From Maylandia zebra (taxonomy: Eukaryota > Chordata > Actinopteri > Cichliformes > Cichlidae): a DNA stretch of 64,000 bases. The stretch covers positions 24,742,060-24,806,059 of the forward strand of contig NC_135177.1 in the NCBI RefSeq assembly GCF_041146795.1, written 5' to 3'. The notes under the pieces were generated by a model that saw only the letters and a list, made by a program, of their open reading frames with translations, was not told the origin of the DNA and ran no database searches. Positions 6,601-64,000 of this stretch are shown here, one piece after another. The translations under genes were made by a program, and so were the position numbers. Within the stretch, counting starts at the first letter, position 1, and each line of letters opens with the position of its first letter.

Positions 6601-9600
6601 AATGAATTGGCTTTCTCTGGAATAACAACCAGCTGTGACCACAGTCACTGTTTCCTCACAGCTGAGGGCTACCAGAAGGTGTGCTGCGTCACACAAAACC
6701 CTCTAAACACATAAAACATGATTTATTTTCATTAAATTGACTTCTCCCCCTCCCCTCTGTCTCTTTTTGGTTATTCAGAGCCGTTTGAGGAGGATGTCAC
6801 AGACACTGATTTATTTCCTCCAAATATTCCCAAGATTCCTGGCACCAAATCATCTTCTCCTCCTCCTGTTAATGTCACCTCCTCTGCTCCCACATCGAGC
6901 CGCGGTGCCTTCAATTCCACTACCGGGCCTACTGGTGAGTCCTGCGCTTCCCCTCTATCCCTCTGCTCATCACCCCAACATTTATCTCCCCTCTCACTCT
7001 TTCCACTTACCATTCCTTCTCTGTTGTCTCCTTTTATCACCTGCCGTGCTCTTTCATTTACCCCTCCGTGGTCCATGCTGCGCTCTACCACATCTCTAAT
7101 TCCCCTGATCTCTCTATCATCTCCTATCTCTTATTTTCCAGTTGCCATGAGTGTAAGCATGTTGGCAGTGCATCTGTGTCATGCGTATGAAGCAGATCCA
7201 GAGGCATGCAGCGCCAAAGGAGGCACGTGTTTGACTGGCCTCTGTCGTCATCACGAGCTCTGAAATTTCTTTGCCTGAACCTCTGTGCCCGATCCTTATC
7301 TAACACAGTGTGTTGTATTTAAAGGAGAAATCAGGCTTAAAATTAAAGGTCAATTGTTTCATTATGGGTTTTTTTTTAATAACTTTAAAGATTGCTGTAT
7401 CGGAGTAAAAGAAAAAAGGCAGAATTCTGCTTTCCAGGACTTTTTTTCCTCTGCTCATCACTCTCTTCTGAGTCTCCATCACTTTTCTTCTCATGCCTTC
7501 CTCCTTTGTCCATCCCTCGCTCCTCCAGAACCCCCCACCACCACCACCACCGCTGTCATGATGGACACCACTGGTAACTGGACGCTTTCAGGTGAGAGGA
7601 AAAAAAGAGAAGAGGGGACGATCAGAGGGGTGGGGAAGCTAACTCCATCCACTCTGGCCCTCCTCCAACATCTTAAAACTGTCCCATTGCTCGGTAGAGA
7701 GTATGAAGTATAATGGGAGAAGGATTACAGGGGCAGTCTTTGGCACCGGGCTCTCTCCCCTGGGTTTGAAGATATACAGCTGGAGGAGAAAACACTAACC
7801 GAGCTATAGTAAAATTTATTTATGTATGAATAACAACTGGGCTTCCTGTGGTCTCACAAACTGCATGTTTTTCGGGAACTGGCTCTAGTCTCCACAGCTA
7901 GACAATAACAGGCTTTTTAGAAAGCTGGAAATGGTTTTCTGTGGCGTGTATGCTGCTTTGTCCTCGTTACTGGCTGCGGTTGAAGGGCTTTGTTTGGGTT
8001 TATTTATTACCCGCATGGTGTTGAAGTGACAGACAGAAAGGGGCCGTCTTCTGCTCTGACATTGTAATGTATCAATTGGTGGTAAATGTGCGCGCATTAG
8101 CGTGGGCGCAGGTGTGTGTTTGTTGATGATATGCATTTATGTGCGCACATCTACGGAAATGCATTATGCACCATATTGCATGAGTTTCTCTGTTGCCTGT
8201 AAGAGTTTGTTTATGGGCAAAAGTTTACACTAAACTGTACCGAGGAAACTCTTTCATTCATCTTTCAAATTACACGCCACATTTGACCTTCAAAGGAGAA
8301 GAAATAGCTGCTTGATTCTGATTAATAGTTGACTTTAAAGCGCTGCATAAAGCCAAACAGTGTTGACATACTGTTCTCACAGCAGCGGGCTCTGAGAAGC
8401 TCTCTGGTATGAGCGGGCATACTAAATGCATTCTCACACAGGCAATCCCTATCAGATGCTTTGTAAGCCTGATGAAACCGCGACCTCAGTGAGAGCGTGA
8501 CTGTGCCGAAAGAGCAAATCCTCGCAGTCTGACCAGAGCATTAACTCAGACCAGCGTGCGGTCTCTCACAAACACCCACACACGAAGACCCCGGTGTTGC
8601 ATGGTGATCGATAGACATGACGTCAGACCCGCATGCAACTTTTAGGAAATCAAGGAAACATGCTAACATTTCATCCTCTATTTGCCTTCTCCAGGGCCGG
8701 CGTTTGCTGCTGTTACTCCAAGGGCGGGGCTTCCCGTGGCTAAAGACGACAGCAGCAATACAGCCATTCTGATTGGCTGCCTGGTGGGCATCATCCTTCT
8801 GCTCCTGGCTGTGATAGTTGTCATTCTTTGGAGGCAGTACTGGAAAAAGTTACTGGGAAAGGTGGGTCCAGACTCGGGTCACATGGCATTCCTTTTTAAA
8901 CTGGCGCTCATGGAGGATCAGCTCATGAAACATTTTCTTATTTATCCCAAGTGGTTTATATTCATCCGATCTTGGGTTGTATCCAAAGTCAGTCATTCAT
9001 TCACAGTTCCCCTATTCCCTGTTTTGGGAATTTTATGTAGGTTACTGTGTAGTCAGTTAAACTTTCCAACATGACGATGATACAGGACAAAGGTACACCG
9101 TGGAAGAGATACAGAGGTTAATAATGACTAATGATTAAATGCAGAGTGGTGTATAAACATGCAGAAAGTGAAAAGGAAACACTCAGTGCATCATGGGAAG
9201 CCCCCAGTAACCCAGGTGTGTTGCAGTATAAGTAAGGGAGGGTTTAGGGTCACCACATCCAGCCCATTTTAAAGTATGTGTGCACTGTGGGATACTTTTA
9301 GTGCACGAGTATAGTAATACTTCAAATGAGCAGCTCTACAGAAAAGCCAACTCATTATATACTCATAATGAGCAGTGTGGGCTTTTTCTTCTTAAACATA
9401 GTCCTGATTTTATTAGCCGAACTTTTGAAACTTTTGTTTTTTCCCACGCTCGTTCCAGCTAAAACATGTTTGTTTACTTTTGCAGAAAGCCTTGAAAACC
9501 TCAAAAATTACGATAATTTTCTAGAGAACCGAAAATGGTAAACGGTAATTTTGCTGTTAACAGATTCAAGGGGAACTACTTTCTGCTGAATAAATGGCTC

Positions 9601-55605: not shown

Positions 55606-55779
55606 ACCATAATTGTTTTTTGTTTTAAAAAAAGCTTACTAAATGCAGTAAAAACATTAATGACATTAAAGTGGATCAGTATATGTACAGGAATGTGTAG
55701 TGGACAATGCTGTGCAATAAACAGCTTTGTGCTCTATCGGTATCCTCGTGTATCACCTGGCTGGTACCTCGTTAAATAC

Positions 55780-56064
55780 CCCCCCTAGCTGTCAGATGAC
55801 CATAGGTATCTCGCGGATGAAGGGTGTCCGGTGTTTCCCGACACGAGTCGAGTGGCTCCGAGAGGGAGCAGAGCCCGACATATTCTGAACATCTTCCAAA
55901 TGTTGAGCCCGAGTCGTGAAGTGCTGCTCTTGAGGGGGGCGAGGTTGCAAGGGAGGGAGACGACGAGGGAGAAATCAGGCGACGTCCGCACAGATTTTCA
56001 CCTCTGAAAGCATCCCGGCAGTCTGCTCCGTGAATGCACCGCAGCTCCAGCCGGCCACTCAAAG
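55780..56064 (+). other. Candidate non-coding first exon of the Ig-fold gene
   Basis: A GC- and CpG-rich block ends in CTCAAAG followed by the consensus donor GTAAGT at 56065. It lies upstream of the coding exon at 60785, whose acceptor precedes 20 nt of 5' UTR. A CpG-rich first exon plus a 4.7-kb first intron fits. The 5' end is unknown and the link to 60785 is inferred. Confidence 0.5.
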
Positions 56065-57199
56065 GTAAGTGCGCTGCAGAGCGCCGTTTTTCTTCACATA
56101 CATGTACGGATGTGTGCCTTAAACGTGGCCGGTACGTGACGGGTTAAATTCTGCAGTTTTTTGCCTGATGCGCTGTCCCGGCTCTGAGGTGGCTGATAAG
56201 ACTCCGAGCTGCGGGGTTTATCACCAACTGCACGCTTTACTGGGAACGAGGAGAGGTGTGAAAATATGTTACCTGTTAAACGGTCCCGGCGTGGAGCTCG
56301 GGCTTTGTGGATATTTATTGTTTTCAATATATATATATTTTACTCATCTTGTTTAAATTAAAATTCAAAAAAATTTCAGAAATGTAAATTGTGGATGGGG
56401 AAATGTTCATTTTTAACAACATGCAGGCTCATCTAAGCAGGTTTAATACAAAGACATACTTGATTGATTTCATTATTGCTGGCAATATAATCATTATATG
56501 GAAATTATATAGATATATTTATTTTAGTGTCTCATGGTACTAGTTGTGTGGTCTATTGGGTAAATGTTCTGTTAAGACTTAAAAGCTTGGTTTATAGCTT
56601 CATTTCTCAGAGGAAGCCTTGGCCTACAGGCTGTCTCTGCCTTGCTCTGCCTGCAGTCCTGCTCATAAACTGTGGCCATTGCTGCACAGCATCAACACCC
56701 AACAAATCCAACCAGTCATTGTTTTCTATCACTGCACAATTATTTCATCTTAAGCATGAATATATCTCACATCTTTTCTTTCATCACCTCTCCTACCATG
56801 TTTGTCAATGCTGCACATAGCTCCACCAGCTCCCTCCTCCTCCACCTCCCCGCTCCTCCCTCATGTCCATTGATTTTAATGAATCTGACAGGTGCAAGCA
56901 ATATGGTGGAAACCTGTCTCATCCTTTAGTTCACTGCAGCAGGCTTTGTAAGAAAATTGGTTGTCAGCTGCTACAGGCTTCCTCTACTAAATGGTACAAA
57001 AATGATACTCTCTGATTTCACTTGGATGAGATCTTTGAATTTGTTTTGTTTTCTTTTTCAACAAGAGGAGATCTGCAGTGATGTTTCACCATTCTTTGTT
57101 TTGGTGAAGGGGAAACCTCCAAGCTCGTTTTTGACGTATGATGCAATCAAATGCACCATTTTCATTCACTCCCACACGTGTCTCTTGATGCAACAATAC

Positions 57200-57200
57200 T

Positions 57201-57276
<76 letters not shown>

Positions 57277-57277
57277 T
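57200..57277 (+). repeat. (TTTC)n microsatellite
   Basis: About 19 uninterrupted TTTC units in the first intron of the Ig-fold gene. It produces a spurious Ser-Phe-Leu repeat frame. Confidence 0.98.
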
Positions 57278-60804: not shown

Positions 60805-63800
60805 ATGGGGACATTCAGAGTGATCGTGCTTAGCCTTCTGGTCACCACGGGTAAGGCCATTGTCAGCATGGTTTGTTTTTGACAAGACATGCAATTAGAT
60901 GTTATATTAGTACATTTTATGCTATAAGAGGAATTAGAAATTTTTATTTAAGTTTAACTGATGAAAAGGTTGTAAAATATTACTCATATCAGTTTAACTC
61001 TAATGCTCTTTTGTCTTTGTTTGCAGCTCTTTCTGCCCCCTTAAAAGGTAAAACGTGTGTCTGAGAGATACTTTTTGATTTGTCTCATATATATTGTGAG
61101 CTTTTACTCTAATGTTTGTTTGTTTCTTTGCTTTATCCACCATAAAAACCAGCTGATGAGGAATCTTACACGTTATTCCACGGAGAGGATTTCCACATCC
61201 TACTACCCTCCCAAAATGTGGAGGTCACGTTTCATAACAAGTCTGCTCCTCGGTCAAAGGATGTGCACCTGATGAGGGAAGGCAAAGTGGTACACAGTCG
61301 GCCTAAACTCGACCGCAGCAACACCCATCTCCTTATAGAGGCTGTGGGTGAGGGAGATGAGGGCGTGTACACCGTGAAGAATCTGGAGAAGCCAGACGAT
61401 GTCAAACGCATGTCGCTTACAGTCCGAGGTACAGAGTAACAAGACACACATTAAACATGGTGACAGAATTCCTAAAAACCCACAAAATCACACCTAAATT
61501 AAATACTGTTTTTACTGTATTTTTACAAATACAGTAATAATCACATAATTGATTGTCATAATTGATATAATAACATAATTGATACTTGATTAGGAATTAA
61601 GACGGCGAGTAACACCAAGCTGCTACTAATCACATGCACTTGATTAACTGATCATCAGTAAGTGTGAACGCTTCTACGAAGGCAGAAGTTTGCAGGTCTG
61701 CAGCATCCAGGTGATTAACACCCTACCATGGAGGAACGACATCAGACAAGCATTCTGAGGTTTATTAGTGAGAAAGATTATTCACAAGTGGAAAAAAGTC
61801 AAGACAGTTGCCAATTTTCTCAAGAGAGCAAGCTTAAACAAGTTCACTCCGAGGTCGGAGACACTCCAAAAAACCCAAGAGCTACATCTCAGATTGTACA
61901 GGCCTCGGTTAGTTAGCATGTTAAATGTTAAACTTCATGAAGTACAATTAAAAAAGACTGAACAATTATGGCTTGTTTGGAAGGGTTGCCAGGGGAAAGC
62001 CTTTTATCTCTACAAAGAACACGGCAGCATGGCTTTGGTTTGCAGTGGCATCTAATCAAAGCACACCTCGTGCCAACTTTCAAGCACGGTGGTGGAGGGA
62101 TGATGATATGGGTTTATGTTGCTGGTAGAGGACCTGGGCACCTTGCAGTCATTGAGCTGACCATGAACTCCTCTGTATACCAAAGTTCCCTAAAGTCAAT
62201 CTGTTTGATAGCTAAAGCTTAGGTGAAGCTTTGTTCAAGCAACAGGTCGATGATCCCAAGCACAGCTGCAAATCTGCAACAGAATGGCTGAAAAAGAAAA
62301 GAATCAAGCTGTTGCAATGGCCCGGTCAATGTCCTGACCTCAATGTTATTAAAGTACTGCGGTGCATAAATGAATGCCAACAAACCTCAATGCTCTGAAG
62401 CAACACTGTAAAGAATAGTGGGCCAAATTCCTCCACGATGATGTGAGAGACCGATAAAGTCACGCAGAAAACAATTACTGCATGTTTTTACTAGTGCTCT
62501 AAAACAGCATCTGAACATCGTCAAAGACGATTAGTCACATACAATTTGTTAATATTTCCAAAACACAGACAGACACGCCTCCTTATCCCCACTAAATACC
62601 TTTAATACAGATTTTTGATACTAGGTATATCTCGCTGTTGCTACTACTTGTGCTTTCAATAATAATTTCAGCAGCTTAATAAACCTACTGTTAGCACATC
62701 CTGTTTGTCCTGTGAGAATTACAAGTTGCAGCAATGTTGACTGTAGAGATTAGACTTGCACACAAATGTGAAGAAGGCATTTTGGGCTGGGAGCAGGAGT
62801 GGTGGGCTCAAACCCAATATTGATAAAAGCGACCGTAGCGCAGAGCTGTGTACCATATGTTGAGAGTAAATGTGAAATCAAGTGATGAAGAGGTATGTGT
62901 GTGTTTGTGTGTAGAGAGTGAAGCTGCCCTGCAGTAATTATGCAGCTCTTTTACCACCAACCCACTCCGCTCTCCTTCCCCGCCTGCTGGTGTCCTGTCG
63001 TTATCTCGTCTTTACTGTCTTTCACTTTATTTGGTTTGTATTACTTCCCCTTCATTCCTGTAACTCTGATATTTTTGGATCCTTTGTCCTCTTTTTGCAG
63101 CATCTGTCACATCATCCTTCCTGTTCTTTTTTACTCCCTTCTCAAATAAACTGTCACTCTGTCGCTGCTCATCTCTGTGAAAATTTCAGACAGTTTTCTG
63201 TCCACTTAATCAAGTGTTTTTTTCTCCGCTTTTATCTTCTAGATTGCACCGTTGAGCAGATGGTCAAATATGGAGACAAATTCAGTATTCATTTGTCGAG
63301 GGTGAATCCTCCCATCACCCTTGAATACAGACCCAGAGCTACAGAGGCCAGGGAGACATTTAGGTAGGTGATATTTTAACCCAAGAGAATATGTAATGAC
63401 ATTTTGCAACATTGATGTACATTCAGTGAGACAGAGGTAACAGGAAAGGTTGAGAAAAAGCTCCTCCTCTTTGACTTTCCCTCCTGCAGACCAGGTTTGG
63501 TGGTGCTGACTGCTGCAGGGACATCACCGGAGCGCTATCAGGGTCGCGTCAGCACCGGTGGTCCTTATGTCACCCTCAGTGGTGTTACAGATGCAGATGA
63601 GGGTAGCTACACTGTCAGGGATAACAAAGGTGGTATTGAACGGAAAGTCTGTCTCAATGTCAAAGGTGAGAGCACATATGAAGACACCTCATGCCTATGT
63701 TCTTCTCCTACACTTGGCTTGCTTTAAATGAGCTTCTAACCCCCCCTTCCCCTGCTGCCATAATGGCTTTTTAAAGACGGAAACATTAATGGGCTCCTGC

Positions 63801-64000
63801 GGGCTGATGCATTTCAGATGATCCATGGAGCTGTAAACAGACTTGTGATTTATTTATCAAATGTCCCTCCTTCTTTTCTGCCTCTTTGTGTCTCAGAGCA
63901 CAAAGAGTTTGTGAAACTGCAACGCGGTAACAAACTGAAGATCAACCTGATACTCAACAGCTCCTTGGTGTACCTCTACTACAGCCCCAAGAGTGACTCC
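60805..64000 (+). CDS. Uncharacterised secreted or membrane Ig-fold protein (5' part; continues past the right edge)
   Basis: I do not recognise this gene by name. Exons: 60805-60850 (ATG, 5' UTR from 60785), 61027-61047, 61153-61428, 63243-63363, 63490-63665 and 63897 to beyond 64000. Phases agree throughout. The N-terminus MGTFRVIVLSLLVTTALSAP is a good signal peptide. Three Ig-like modules follow. The first, in 61153-61428, has the F-strand EGDEGVYTV. The second, across 63243-63665, has DADEGSYTV. The third begins in the last exon (KLQRGNKLKINLIL). The D-E-G-x-Y pattern is the Ig F-strand signature, but the position normally Cys is Val, and the B-strand Cys is also replaced (DFHILL, KFSIHL). 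A single Cys near each start or end (DCTVEQ, RKVCLNV) does not form the usual pair. Function unknown; the transmembrane or C-terminal part is outside the window. Confidence 0.8.
61590..62540 (+). pseudogene. Tc1-like transposase pseudogene in an intron of the Ig-fold gene
   Basis: The plus strand encodes FKHGGGGMMIWVYVAGRGPG then HLAVIELTMNSSVYQSSL, equivalent to the HGGGSVMVWG catalytic-domain region. Downstream, in another frame, ATEWLKKKRIKLLQWPGQCP then DLNVI corresponds to the WP-QSPDLNPIE motif, with the catalytic region damaged. Frameshifts and stops separate the parts. It lies in intron 61429-63242. Confidence 0.85.

What the first reader, a model, noticed from the sequence alone, without database searches (positions are those of the whole stretch)
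60805..64000. Ig-fold gene whose domains lack the canonical disulfide cysteines
Beside mdc1 in this MHC-linked block lies a secreted or membrane protein with at least three Ig-like modules. In modules 1 and 2 both the B-strand and F-strand cysteines are replaced by hydrophobic residues while the DEGxY motif persists. Extracellular Ig domains rarely lose both. I do not recognise the family; it could be a fish-specific lineage with an immune or adhesion role.
Basis: partly seen in the sequence, partly recalled or inferred. Interest (0 to 1): 0.7.

Follow-up and report, generated by a model that had tools for sequence, protein, structure and literature searches.

The report
Fish receptor without usual Ig disulfides
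This fish gene makes a cell-surface protein with three immunoglobulin-like domains that all appear to lack the disulfide bond normally holding such domains together, and it has a sister gene near the fish's MHC class I genes, so it looks like an old, uncharacterised fish family of cell-contact receptors.

Summary
The gene runs on past the window: nine coding exons with GT-AG borders give an open frame of 598 residues (signal peptide, three Ig-like domains, membrane segment, long tail). Genome searches found one relative (522 residues, contig C21); the next match is at chance level. In all six domains of the pair the B-strand cysteine site is Leu/Val and the F-strand site Val/Ile; the C-strand Trp is gone too, while D/N-x-G-x-Y/F persists. 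The only extracellular cysteines after the signal peptide, two in domain 2 (A-strand start, G strand), are kept in both copies, suggesting a non-canonical A-G disulfide. The copies lie in duplicated flot1-tubb blocks. The window's copy is 13 Mb from the only MHC class I match on its contig; the sister is 160 kb from the class I array. Between TUBB and a TCF19-like gene, the sister takes the place of an "UNKNOWN" gene (one EST) of the Atlantic salmon class I region, which its authors thought possibly unique to teleosts (2007). Most likely an old teleost type I membrane receptor, probably adhesive like CD2 but outside the CD2 and CEACAM families. Structure, ligand and expression are untested.

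The parts
55750..56064 (+). candidate promoter / 5' untranslated exon (CpG-rich), donor after 56064, could splice to the acceptor just before 60785
   Evidence: GC 0.53-0.59 and CpG observed/expected 0.80-1.03 in 200-base windows from 55700 to 56299, window-wide 0.44; donor AAGGTAAGT in the top 0.12% of GT sites. No transcript evidence; it could belong to something else.
60805..60850 (+). coding exon 1: start codon and signal peptide
   Evidence: hydrophobic core by Kyte-Doolittle
61027..61047 (+). coding exon 2 (21 nt), end of signal / linker; same size and phase in the paralogue
61153..61428 (+). coding exon 3: Ig-like domain 1 in one exon, B site Leu, F site Val, no cysteine
63243..63363 (+). 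coding exon 4: first half of Ig-like domain 2 (B site Leu; cysteine 116 at the A-strand start)
63490..63665 (+). coding exon 5: second half of Ig-like domain 2 (DEGSYTV, F site Val; cysteine 209 in the G strand)
63897..64000 (+). coding exon 6: first half of Ig-like domain 3 (B site Leu); runs on outside the window to 64039. Exons 7 (64920-65067), 8 (65874-66055, membrane segment) and 9 (66962-67645, tail and stop) follow in window-continued coordinates

Best explanation
The gene and its single detected paralogue (A on contig C11 beside mdc1, B on C21 beside tubb) form a two-member teleost family of type I membrane receptors. Shown at sequence level: signal peptide, three Ig-like domains, membrane segment, cytoplasmic tail, canonical disulfide sites replaced in all six domains. 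Inferred: each domain folds as an Ig sandwich whose core uses Leu/Val opposite Val/Ile in place of the cystine; domain 2 of each is pinned by a non-canonical disulfide between the start of strand A and strand G; the ectodomain makes cell-cell contacts as the disulfide-free N-terminal domains of CD2 and CEACAM do, while the conserved membrane and juxtamembrane block (LLxCLLSC, KVxKR, GEAFRQGLEVS) and a tail motif (SDSGVxF..LPLDxDT) anchor it and couple it to the cell interior without recognised tyrosine motifs. The pair most likely arose in the teleost genome duplication, B staying with MHC class I and A going with mdc1.
For: Full gene models with canonical splice borders and open frames of 598 and 522 residues. 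Six of six domains have L/V at the B site and V/I at the F site; no Trp in the 598 residues of A or the first 375 of B. Both domain-2 cysteines conserved although only 41 of 99 residues there are identical. Membrane/juxtamembrane block 36 of 59 identical, the most conserved part. Ectodomain NG86 dN 0.74 and dS 2.2 (saturated; not computable for domain 2 alone), consistent with purifying selection. Only the two loci match in the genome search; the next match has E 8.3. Both blocks hold flotillin-1 and tubulin next to the gene. Zebrafish has flot1 on chromosome 19, where most of its MHC genes lie, and flot1b and ddr1-like on 16 (PMC1309616, passages). Precedent for disulfide-free IgV and for an A-G disulfide in zebrafish Cd2 (PMC5990624, passages).
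Against: No structure could be predicted, so the Ig fold, the register and the A-G bond rest on sequence. The complete proteins score below Pfam's V-set cut-off (24.9 and 24.1 against 26), and single-sequence searches of solved structures found nothing significant (best E 0.38, 0.17 and 0.035). No ligand, tissue or transcript evidence for the window's copy; the tails have no ITIM, ITSM or ITAM and no class II SH3 motif, so the signalling route is unknown. No CD2-family chain is among the 60 rows shown of 88 and of 90. Duplication age: mdc1 and ddr1 had no match at E 1e-4 in the 129.8 kb fetched from C21, and the zebrafish survey mapped tubb relatives to 20, 14 and 23 and did not find MDC1 (it also says the tubb5 position was disputed).
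Confidence: 0.6

Rival explanations
1. A divergent offshoot of the CD2/SLAM or CEACAM adhesion families that spread the disulfide-free N-terminal type of domain through the whole ectodomain.
For: Disulfide-free extracellular V-like domains occur in CD2/CD58 and, by the F-strand residue shown, in CEACAM1; CEACAM1 and CEACAM6 are among the matches of the domain profiles.
Against: The second domain lacks the canonical pair that the C2 domains of Cd58 and Cd2 keep; no ITSM or ITIM; no CD2-family chain in the 60 rows shown in each; titin ranks above CEACAM in both, so the profile matches reflect the general Ig motif.
Confidence: 0.15
2. A muscle-type (titin/obscurin-like) intracellular Ig protein that gained a signal peptide, its lost cysteines reflecting a reducing environment.
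For: Titin chains are the top profile matches (E 2.9e-7 and 2.6e-6).
Against: Signal peptide and membrane segment in both paralogues; N-glycosylation sequons in the ectodomain, 3 in A and 4 in B; two extracellular cysteines conserved; single stretches against titin are weak (at most 18.0 bits among those printed).
Confidence: 0.07
3. A structural or matrix-facing adhesion protein (not immune) that merely sits in a duplicated MHC-framework block.
For: The window's copy is far from the MHC_I matches; neighbours are tubulin, flotillin and FHA genes; no immune tyrosine motif; only two loci found, unlike fast-expanding immune receptor families.
Against: Nothing specific; the sister keeps linkage to the class I array and the place of its salmon counterpart in the class I region, but linkage alone says little about function.
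Confidence: 0.35
4. A pseudogene or a chance assembly of open frames.
For: No transcript was seen for the window's copy; two splice donors are weak.
Against: Nine exons with GT-AG borders and no stop over 598 codons, same exon phases in the paralogue apart from one extra intron in domain 3, 0 of 5000 shuffles of the window's exons open, dN below dS.
Confidence: 0.02

Closest known systems
Atlantic salmon MHC class IA region gene labelled UNKNOWN (EST DW569240), said to have some identity to zebrafish chromosome 19 XP_001344849 and Tetraodon CAF97811; PMC1971071, section 6 read whole
   Same: In the salmon gene table it stands between TCF19 and TUBB, with FLOT1, ZNF384, KIFC1 and ZBTB22 following; gene B here lies between TUBB and an FHA gene read as TCF19, with flotillin-1, zinc-finger, kinesin and BTB/zinc-finger genes in the same order.
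   Different: The section read reports no domains for it; its map figure is not held, so the order is that of the table. Sequence identity could not be tested, since those records are not held. The window's gene is the paralogue, not the positional counterpart.
CD2 / CD58 (CD2-SLAM family)
   Same: V-like extracellular domain without the canonical disulfide, type I membrane protein; an A-G disulfide is described in zebrafish Cd2.
   Different: Three domains rather than two; the second domain lacks the B-F pair; no ITSM; no CD2-family chain among the 60 rows shown in each.
CEACAM1 / CEACAM6
   Same: First matched domain with Leu at the F site (alignment); profile matches.
   Different: CEACAM A/B domains are C2-set with cystines and the CEACAM1 tail has ITIMs (recalled); here no domain has the cystine and no ITIM was found.
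Titin I-set domains
   Same: Ig domains, some with hydrophobic residues at the F site in the printed alignments; top profile matches.
   Different: Titin is intracellular (recalled); A and B have signal peptide, membrane segment and sequons.

Membership tests
Immunoglobulin superfamily (V/I-type domain) | Profile match to a curated Ig model | tested here: inconclusive
   248-residue piece: V-set 26.7 bits, above the cut-off of 26. Complete proteins: 24.9 and 24.1, below it. Domains scanned singly: V-set matched 3 of 6 at E up to 1, best E 0.01; domain 1 alone 16.4 bits.
Immunoglobulin superfamily (V/I-type domain) | Tyrosine-corner motif D-x-G-x-Y before the F site | tested here: met
   6 of 6 domains carry [D/N]-x-G-x-[Y/F]; strictly D-x-G-x-Y in 2 of 6.
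Immunoglobulin superfamily (V/I-type domain) | B-F cystine and C-strand Trp | tested here: not met
   B site L,L,L,V,L,L; F site V,V,V,I,I,V; Trp site L,L,F,I,L,V in the six domains.
CD2/SLAM family | N-terminal V domain without disulfide | tested here: met
   Domain 1 of A and B has no cysteine; the family feature as in PMC5990624 passages.
CD2/SLAM family | Second domain C2-type with one or two disulfides including B-F | tested here: not met
   Domain 2 has only the A-start and G-strand cysteines.
CD2/SLAM family | ITSM or CD2-type SH3-binding tail | tested here: not met
   No ITSM and no PxxPx[R/K] in either tail; one [R/K]xxPxxP in A, none in B.
CEACAM family | C2-set A/B domains with cystine and ITIM/ITAM tail (feature recalled) | tested here: not met
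   No canonical cystine in any domain, no ITIM or ITAM.
DICP (MHC-linked fish IgSF receptors) | D1/D2 with conserved cysteines, multigene clusters (feature recalled) | tested here: not met
   Cysteine sites absent; only two loci found in the genome. No DICP sequence was compared.
Salmon MHC-IA UNKNOWN gene | Position between TCF19 and TUBB in the class I region | tested here: met
   For paralogue B: against PMC1971071 section 6. The TCF19 name rests on an FHA match and recall.
Salmon MHC-IA UNKNOWN gene | Sequence identity to DW569240 / XP_001344849 / CAF97811 | not testable with these tools
   Those records are not in the collections offered here.

The most novel reading that the evidence does not exclude
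Teleosts carry an undescribed, duplication-old family of membrane receptors whose entire three-domain Ig ectodomain has dispensed with the canonical disulfides and uses a single A-G cystine in the middle domain instead; one copy has stayed locked beside the MHC class I genes in this fish, in salmon and possibly in zebrafish, as an unrecognised constituent of the teleost MHC class I region.
Probability: 0.45. Interest if true: 0.7.

Novelty: new variant of a known kind. Interest (0 to 1): 0.55.

Why it matters
The B-F cystine is the textbook mark of extracellular Ig domains. A receptor that seems to do without it in all three domains, in both copies of an old duplicate pair, is a natural test of how the fold is stabilised without the bond. 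The sister copy also offers a domain plan for the one entry called UNKNOWN in the salmon MHC class I gene table, making its role in the teleost MHC region directly testable.

Tried and rejected
Tried without result: relatives of domain 1 in viral contigs (19 pattern matches, none confirmed) and in prokaryotic genome contigs (328, none confirmed) and of exon 5 in viral contigs (124, none confirmed); NCBIfam (one match far below its cut-off); Rfam on the window (none); single-sequence searches of solved structures (best E 0.38, 0.17, 0.035). Paper searches: searches gave 0 papers; the listings showed no title or abstract on such a family. Passages of PMC4810163, PMC13278318, PMC2846915 and PMC5824609 added little; PMC2846915 places FLOT1 and TUBB in the salmon IB region too.

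Considered and rejected: a beta-defensin match at 6736-7263 (below cut-off); Herpes_gE_N, LST1, TcdA/TcdB-pore and other matches (all far below cut-off, read as chance); an SH3-binding tail like that of CD2 (no class II motif in A, while its shuffles average 1.0).

Not done: the MDC1 BRCT region was read by eye and by a motif scan, not by Pfam, since one search failed on stop codons; I then left those pieces and the three long frames out. The names ddr1, vars2 and tcf19 rest partly on recall. No orthologue in another fish was compared at sequence level.

Full report
What was claimed. I checked the letters first. The window holds six coding exons of a plus-strand gene (60805-60850, 61027-61047, 61153-61428, 63243-63363, 63490-63665, 63897 to the window's end), each with GT-AG borders and matching phases, giving 248 residues without a stop. 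In 5000 simple base shuffles of these exons none stayed open; third-position GC is 0.57 against 0.40 overall in the introns. Two donors are weak. Domains 1 and 2 align with a score reached by 2 of 2000 shuffles; domain 2 and the partial domain 3 by 28 of 2000; domain 1 against the partial domain 3 is not significant, 1160 of 2000.

The whole gene. Once the window's assembly answered (962 Mb, 63 contigs, window at C11:24742060-24806059), I fetched the DNA downstream. The gene has nine coding exons and ends at window-continued coordinate 67645: 598 residues, with a signal peptide, three Ig-like domains, a membrane segment, and a tail which, counted from residue 340, has 259 residues, 46 prolines and no tyrosine. 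A CpG-rich stretch with a strong donor at 55.75-56.06 kb is a candidate first, untranslated exon; no transcript was available.

The paralogue. The same search found a second locus on C21. Its model (C21:6745566-6764399, eight coding exons, 522 residues) has the same plan, including the 21-nt second exon and the phase-2 intron inside domain 2; domain 3 is one exon there but split by a phase-0 intron in the window's copy. Identity is 29 of 93 in domain 1, 41 of 99 in domain 2, 33 of 97 in domain 3, 36 of 59 in the membrane and juxtamembrane block and 43 of 132 aligned tail residues. NG86 dN/dS over the ectodomain is 0.74/2.2, dS being saturated and not computable for domain 2 alone. A search with 417 residues of the paralogue at E up to 10 gave only these two loci; the next match has E 8.3. 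The search scores only its best first-look candidates, so a very remote relative could be missed.

The missing disulfide. On the six-domain alignment the B-cysteine site reads L,L,L,V,L,L, the F-cysteine site V,V,V,I,I,V and the C-strand Trp site L,L,F,I,L,V, while D/N-x-G-x-Y/F is kept in all six. The register is set by the conserved Gly before strand B and the tyrosine corner before strand F; it is an inference from sequence. After the signal peptide the ectodomains hold only two cysteines, at the start of strand A and in strand G of domain 2: 116 and 209 in A, 116 and 215 in B (B has one more inside its signal peptide, and both have two in the membrane segment). Because they are kept while 58 of 99 residues of the domain changed, I infer a non-canonical A-G disulfide. 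[quoted passage not shown] that passage words it under the IgV-like domain, but the paper says elsewhere that IgV has none and the IgC2 domain of Cd2 two. An interchain bond is the alternative.

Is it unusual? A V domain without the disulfide is not new: the same paper says so for Cd58 and Cd2 from fish to mammals. The CEACAM1 chain shows Leu at the F site of its first matched domain. What differs is that all three domains of the ectodomain lack the pair, in both copies. The ten paper searches listed no description of such a family; the library misses most subscription papers.

Family. For the complete proteins Pfam gives V-set at 24.9 and 24.1 bits, under the cut-off of 26, with Ig_3 and I-set also below theirs; the 248-residue piece had reached 26.7. 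Of the six domains taken singly, three match V-set and two I-set at E up to 1, best E 0.0076 to Ig_3. Single sequences found no significant solved structure. Profiles of the domains do: titin E 2.9e-7 and CEACAM1 5.1e-5, titin 2.6e-6, VEGFR2 8.4e-5 and CEACAM1 2e-4, spread over several weak stretches. No CD2-family chain is among the 60 rows shown of 88 and of 90. The defining features of the CD2/SLAM and CEACAM families tested here fail on the second domain and the tail motifs.

Place. The window holds a tyrosine-kinase gene read as ddr1, flotillin-1, tubulin and an FHA gene read as mdc1 (FHA match; BRCT by eye). On C21 lie, in this order, zinc-finger and BTB exons, kinesin, zinc-finger, the flotillin counterpart, tubulin, gene B and an FHA gene read as TCF19. 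mdc1 and ddr1 exons had no C21 match at E 1e-4 in the 129.8 kb fetched. Of the 76 MHC_I matches listed, 74 are on C21, most between 5.3 and 6.6 Mb; gene B is about 160 kb from the nearest. On C11 the single match is about 13.4 Mb from the window's gene. So the block is the counterpart of the human class I framework region, but only the sister copy is linked to class I genes here.

What was known. [quoted passage not shown] the map figure is not held). Gene B occupies that place. Sequence identity could not be tested. The zebrafish survey has flot1 on chromosome 19, which it says holds the largest number of MHC genes, and flot1b and ddr1-like on 16, but maps tubb relatives to 20, 14 and 23 and did not find MDC1 (PMC1309616, passages). 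That the C21 and C11 blocks come from the teleost duplication is inference.

How it probably works. Shown at sequence level: type I membrane plan, disulfide sites replaced, two conserved cysteines, conserved membrane and juxtamembrane block, one conserved tail motif (SDSGVxF..LPLDxDT). Inferred: a cell-cell contact receptor working as CD2- or CEACAM-type adhesion domains do, its cytoplasmic module coupling by something other than the usual phosphotyrosine motifs, since the tails have no ITIM, ITSM or ITAM. Whether the role is immune, neural or epithelial cannot be told.

Verdict. It is a new variant of a known kind (an Ig-superfamily membrane receptor), uncharacterised rather than unseen.

Noticed in passing
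G000:C21:5.30-6.59 Mb and 1.53-1.62 Mb: A dense array of MHC class I exon matches: 74 of the 76 MHC_I matches listed lie on C21 (a lower bound), some with stops, in two groups several Mb apart.
   Followed up: no
G000:C1:41700124-41700609 and G000:C11:38212930-38213415: Two MHC_I matches on other contigs, each in a 349-residue open frame and covering the same model range 16-177, suggesting duplicated intron-poor class I-like sequences.
   Followed up: no
window-continued 64040-64919 (C11:24806099-24806978): Domain 3 is split by a phase-0 intron in the window's copy but is a single exon in the C21 paralogue: an intron gain or loss between the two copies.
   Followed up: partly
62216-62395: Decayed transposase relic inside intron 3 (DDE_3 E 2.3e-4, below its cut-off); Tc1-like by reading. 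The neighbouring frame 61962-62219 gave no Pfam match.
   Followed up: partly
L008:8601-9191 (minus strand): PRY-SPRY exon about 5 kb downstream of the Ig gene's stop.
   Followed up: no
57200-57277: CTTT microsatellite between the candidate promoter and the first coding exon.
   Followed up: no
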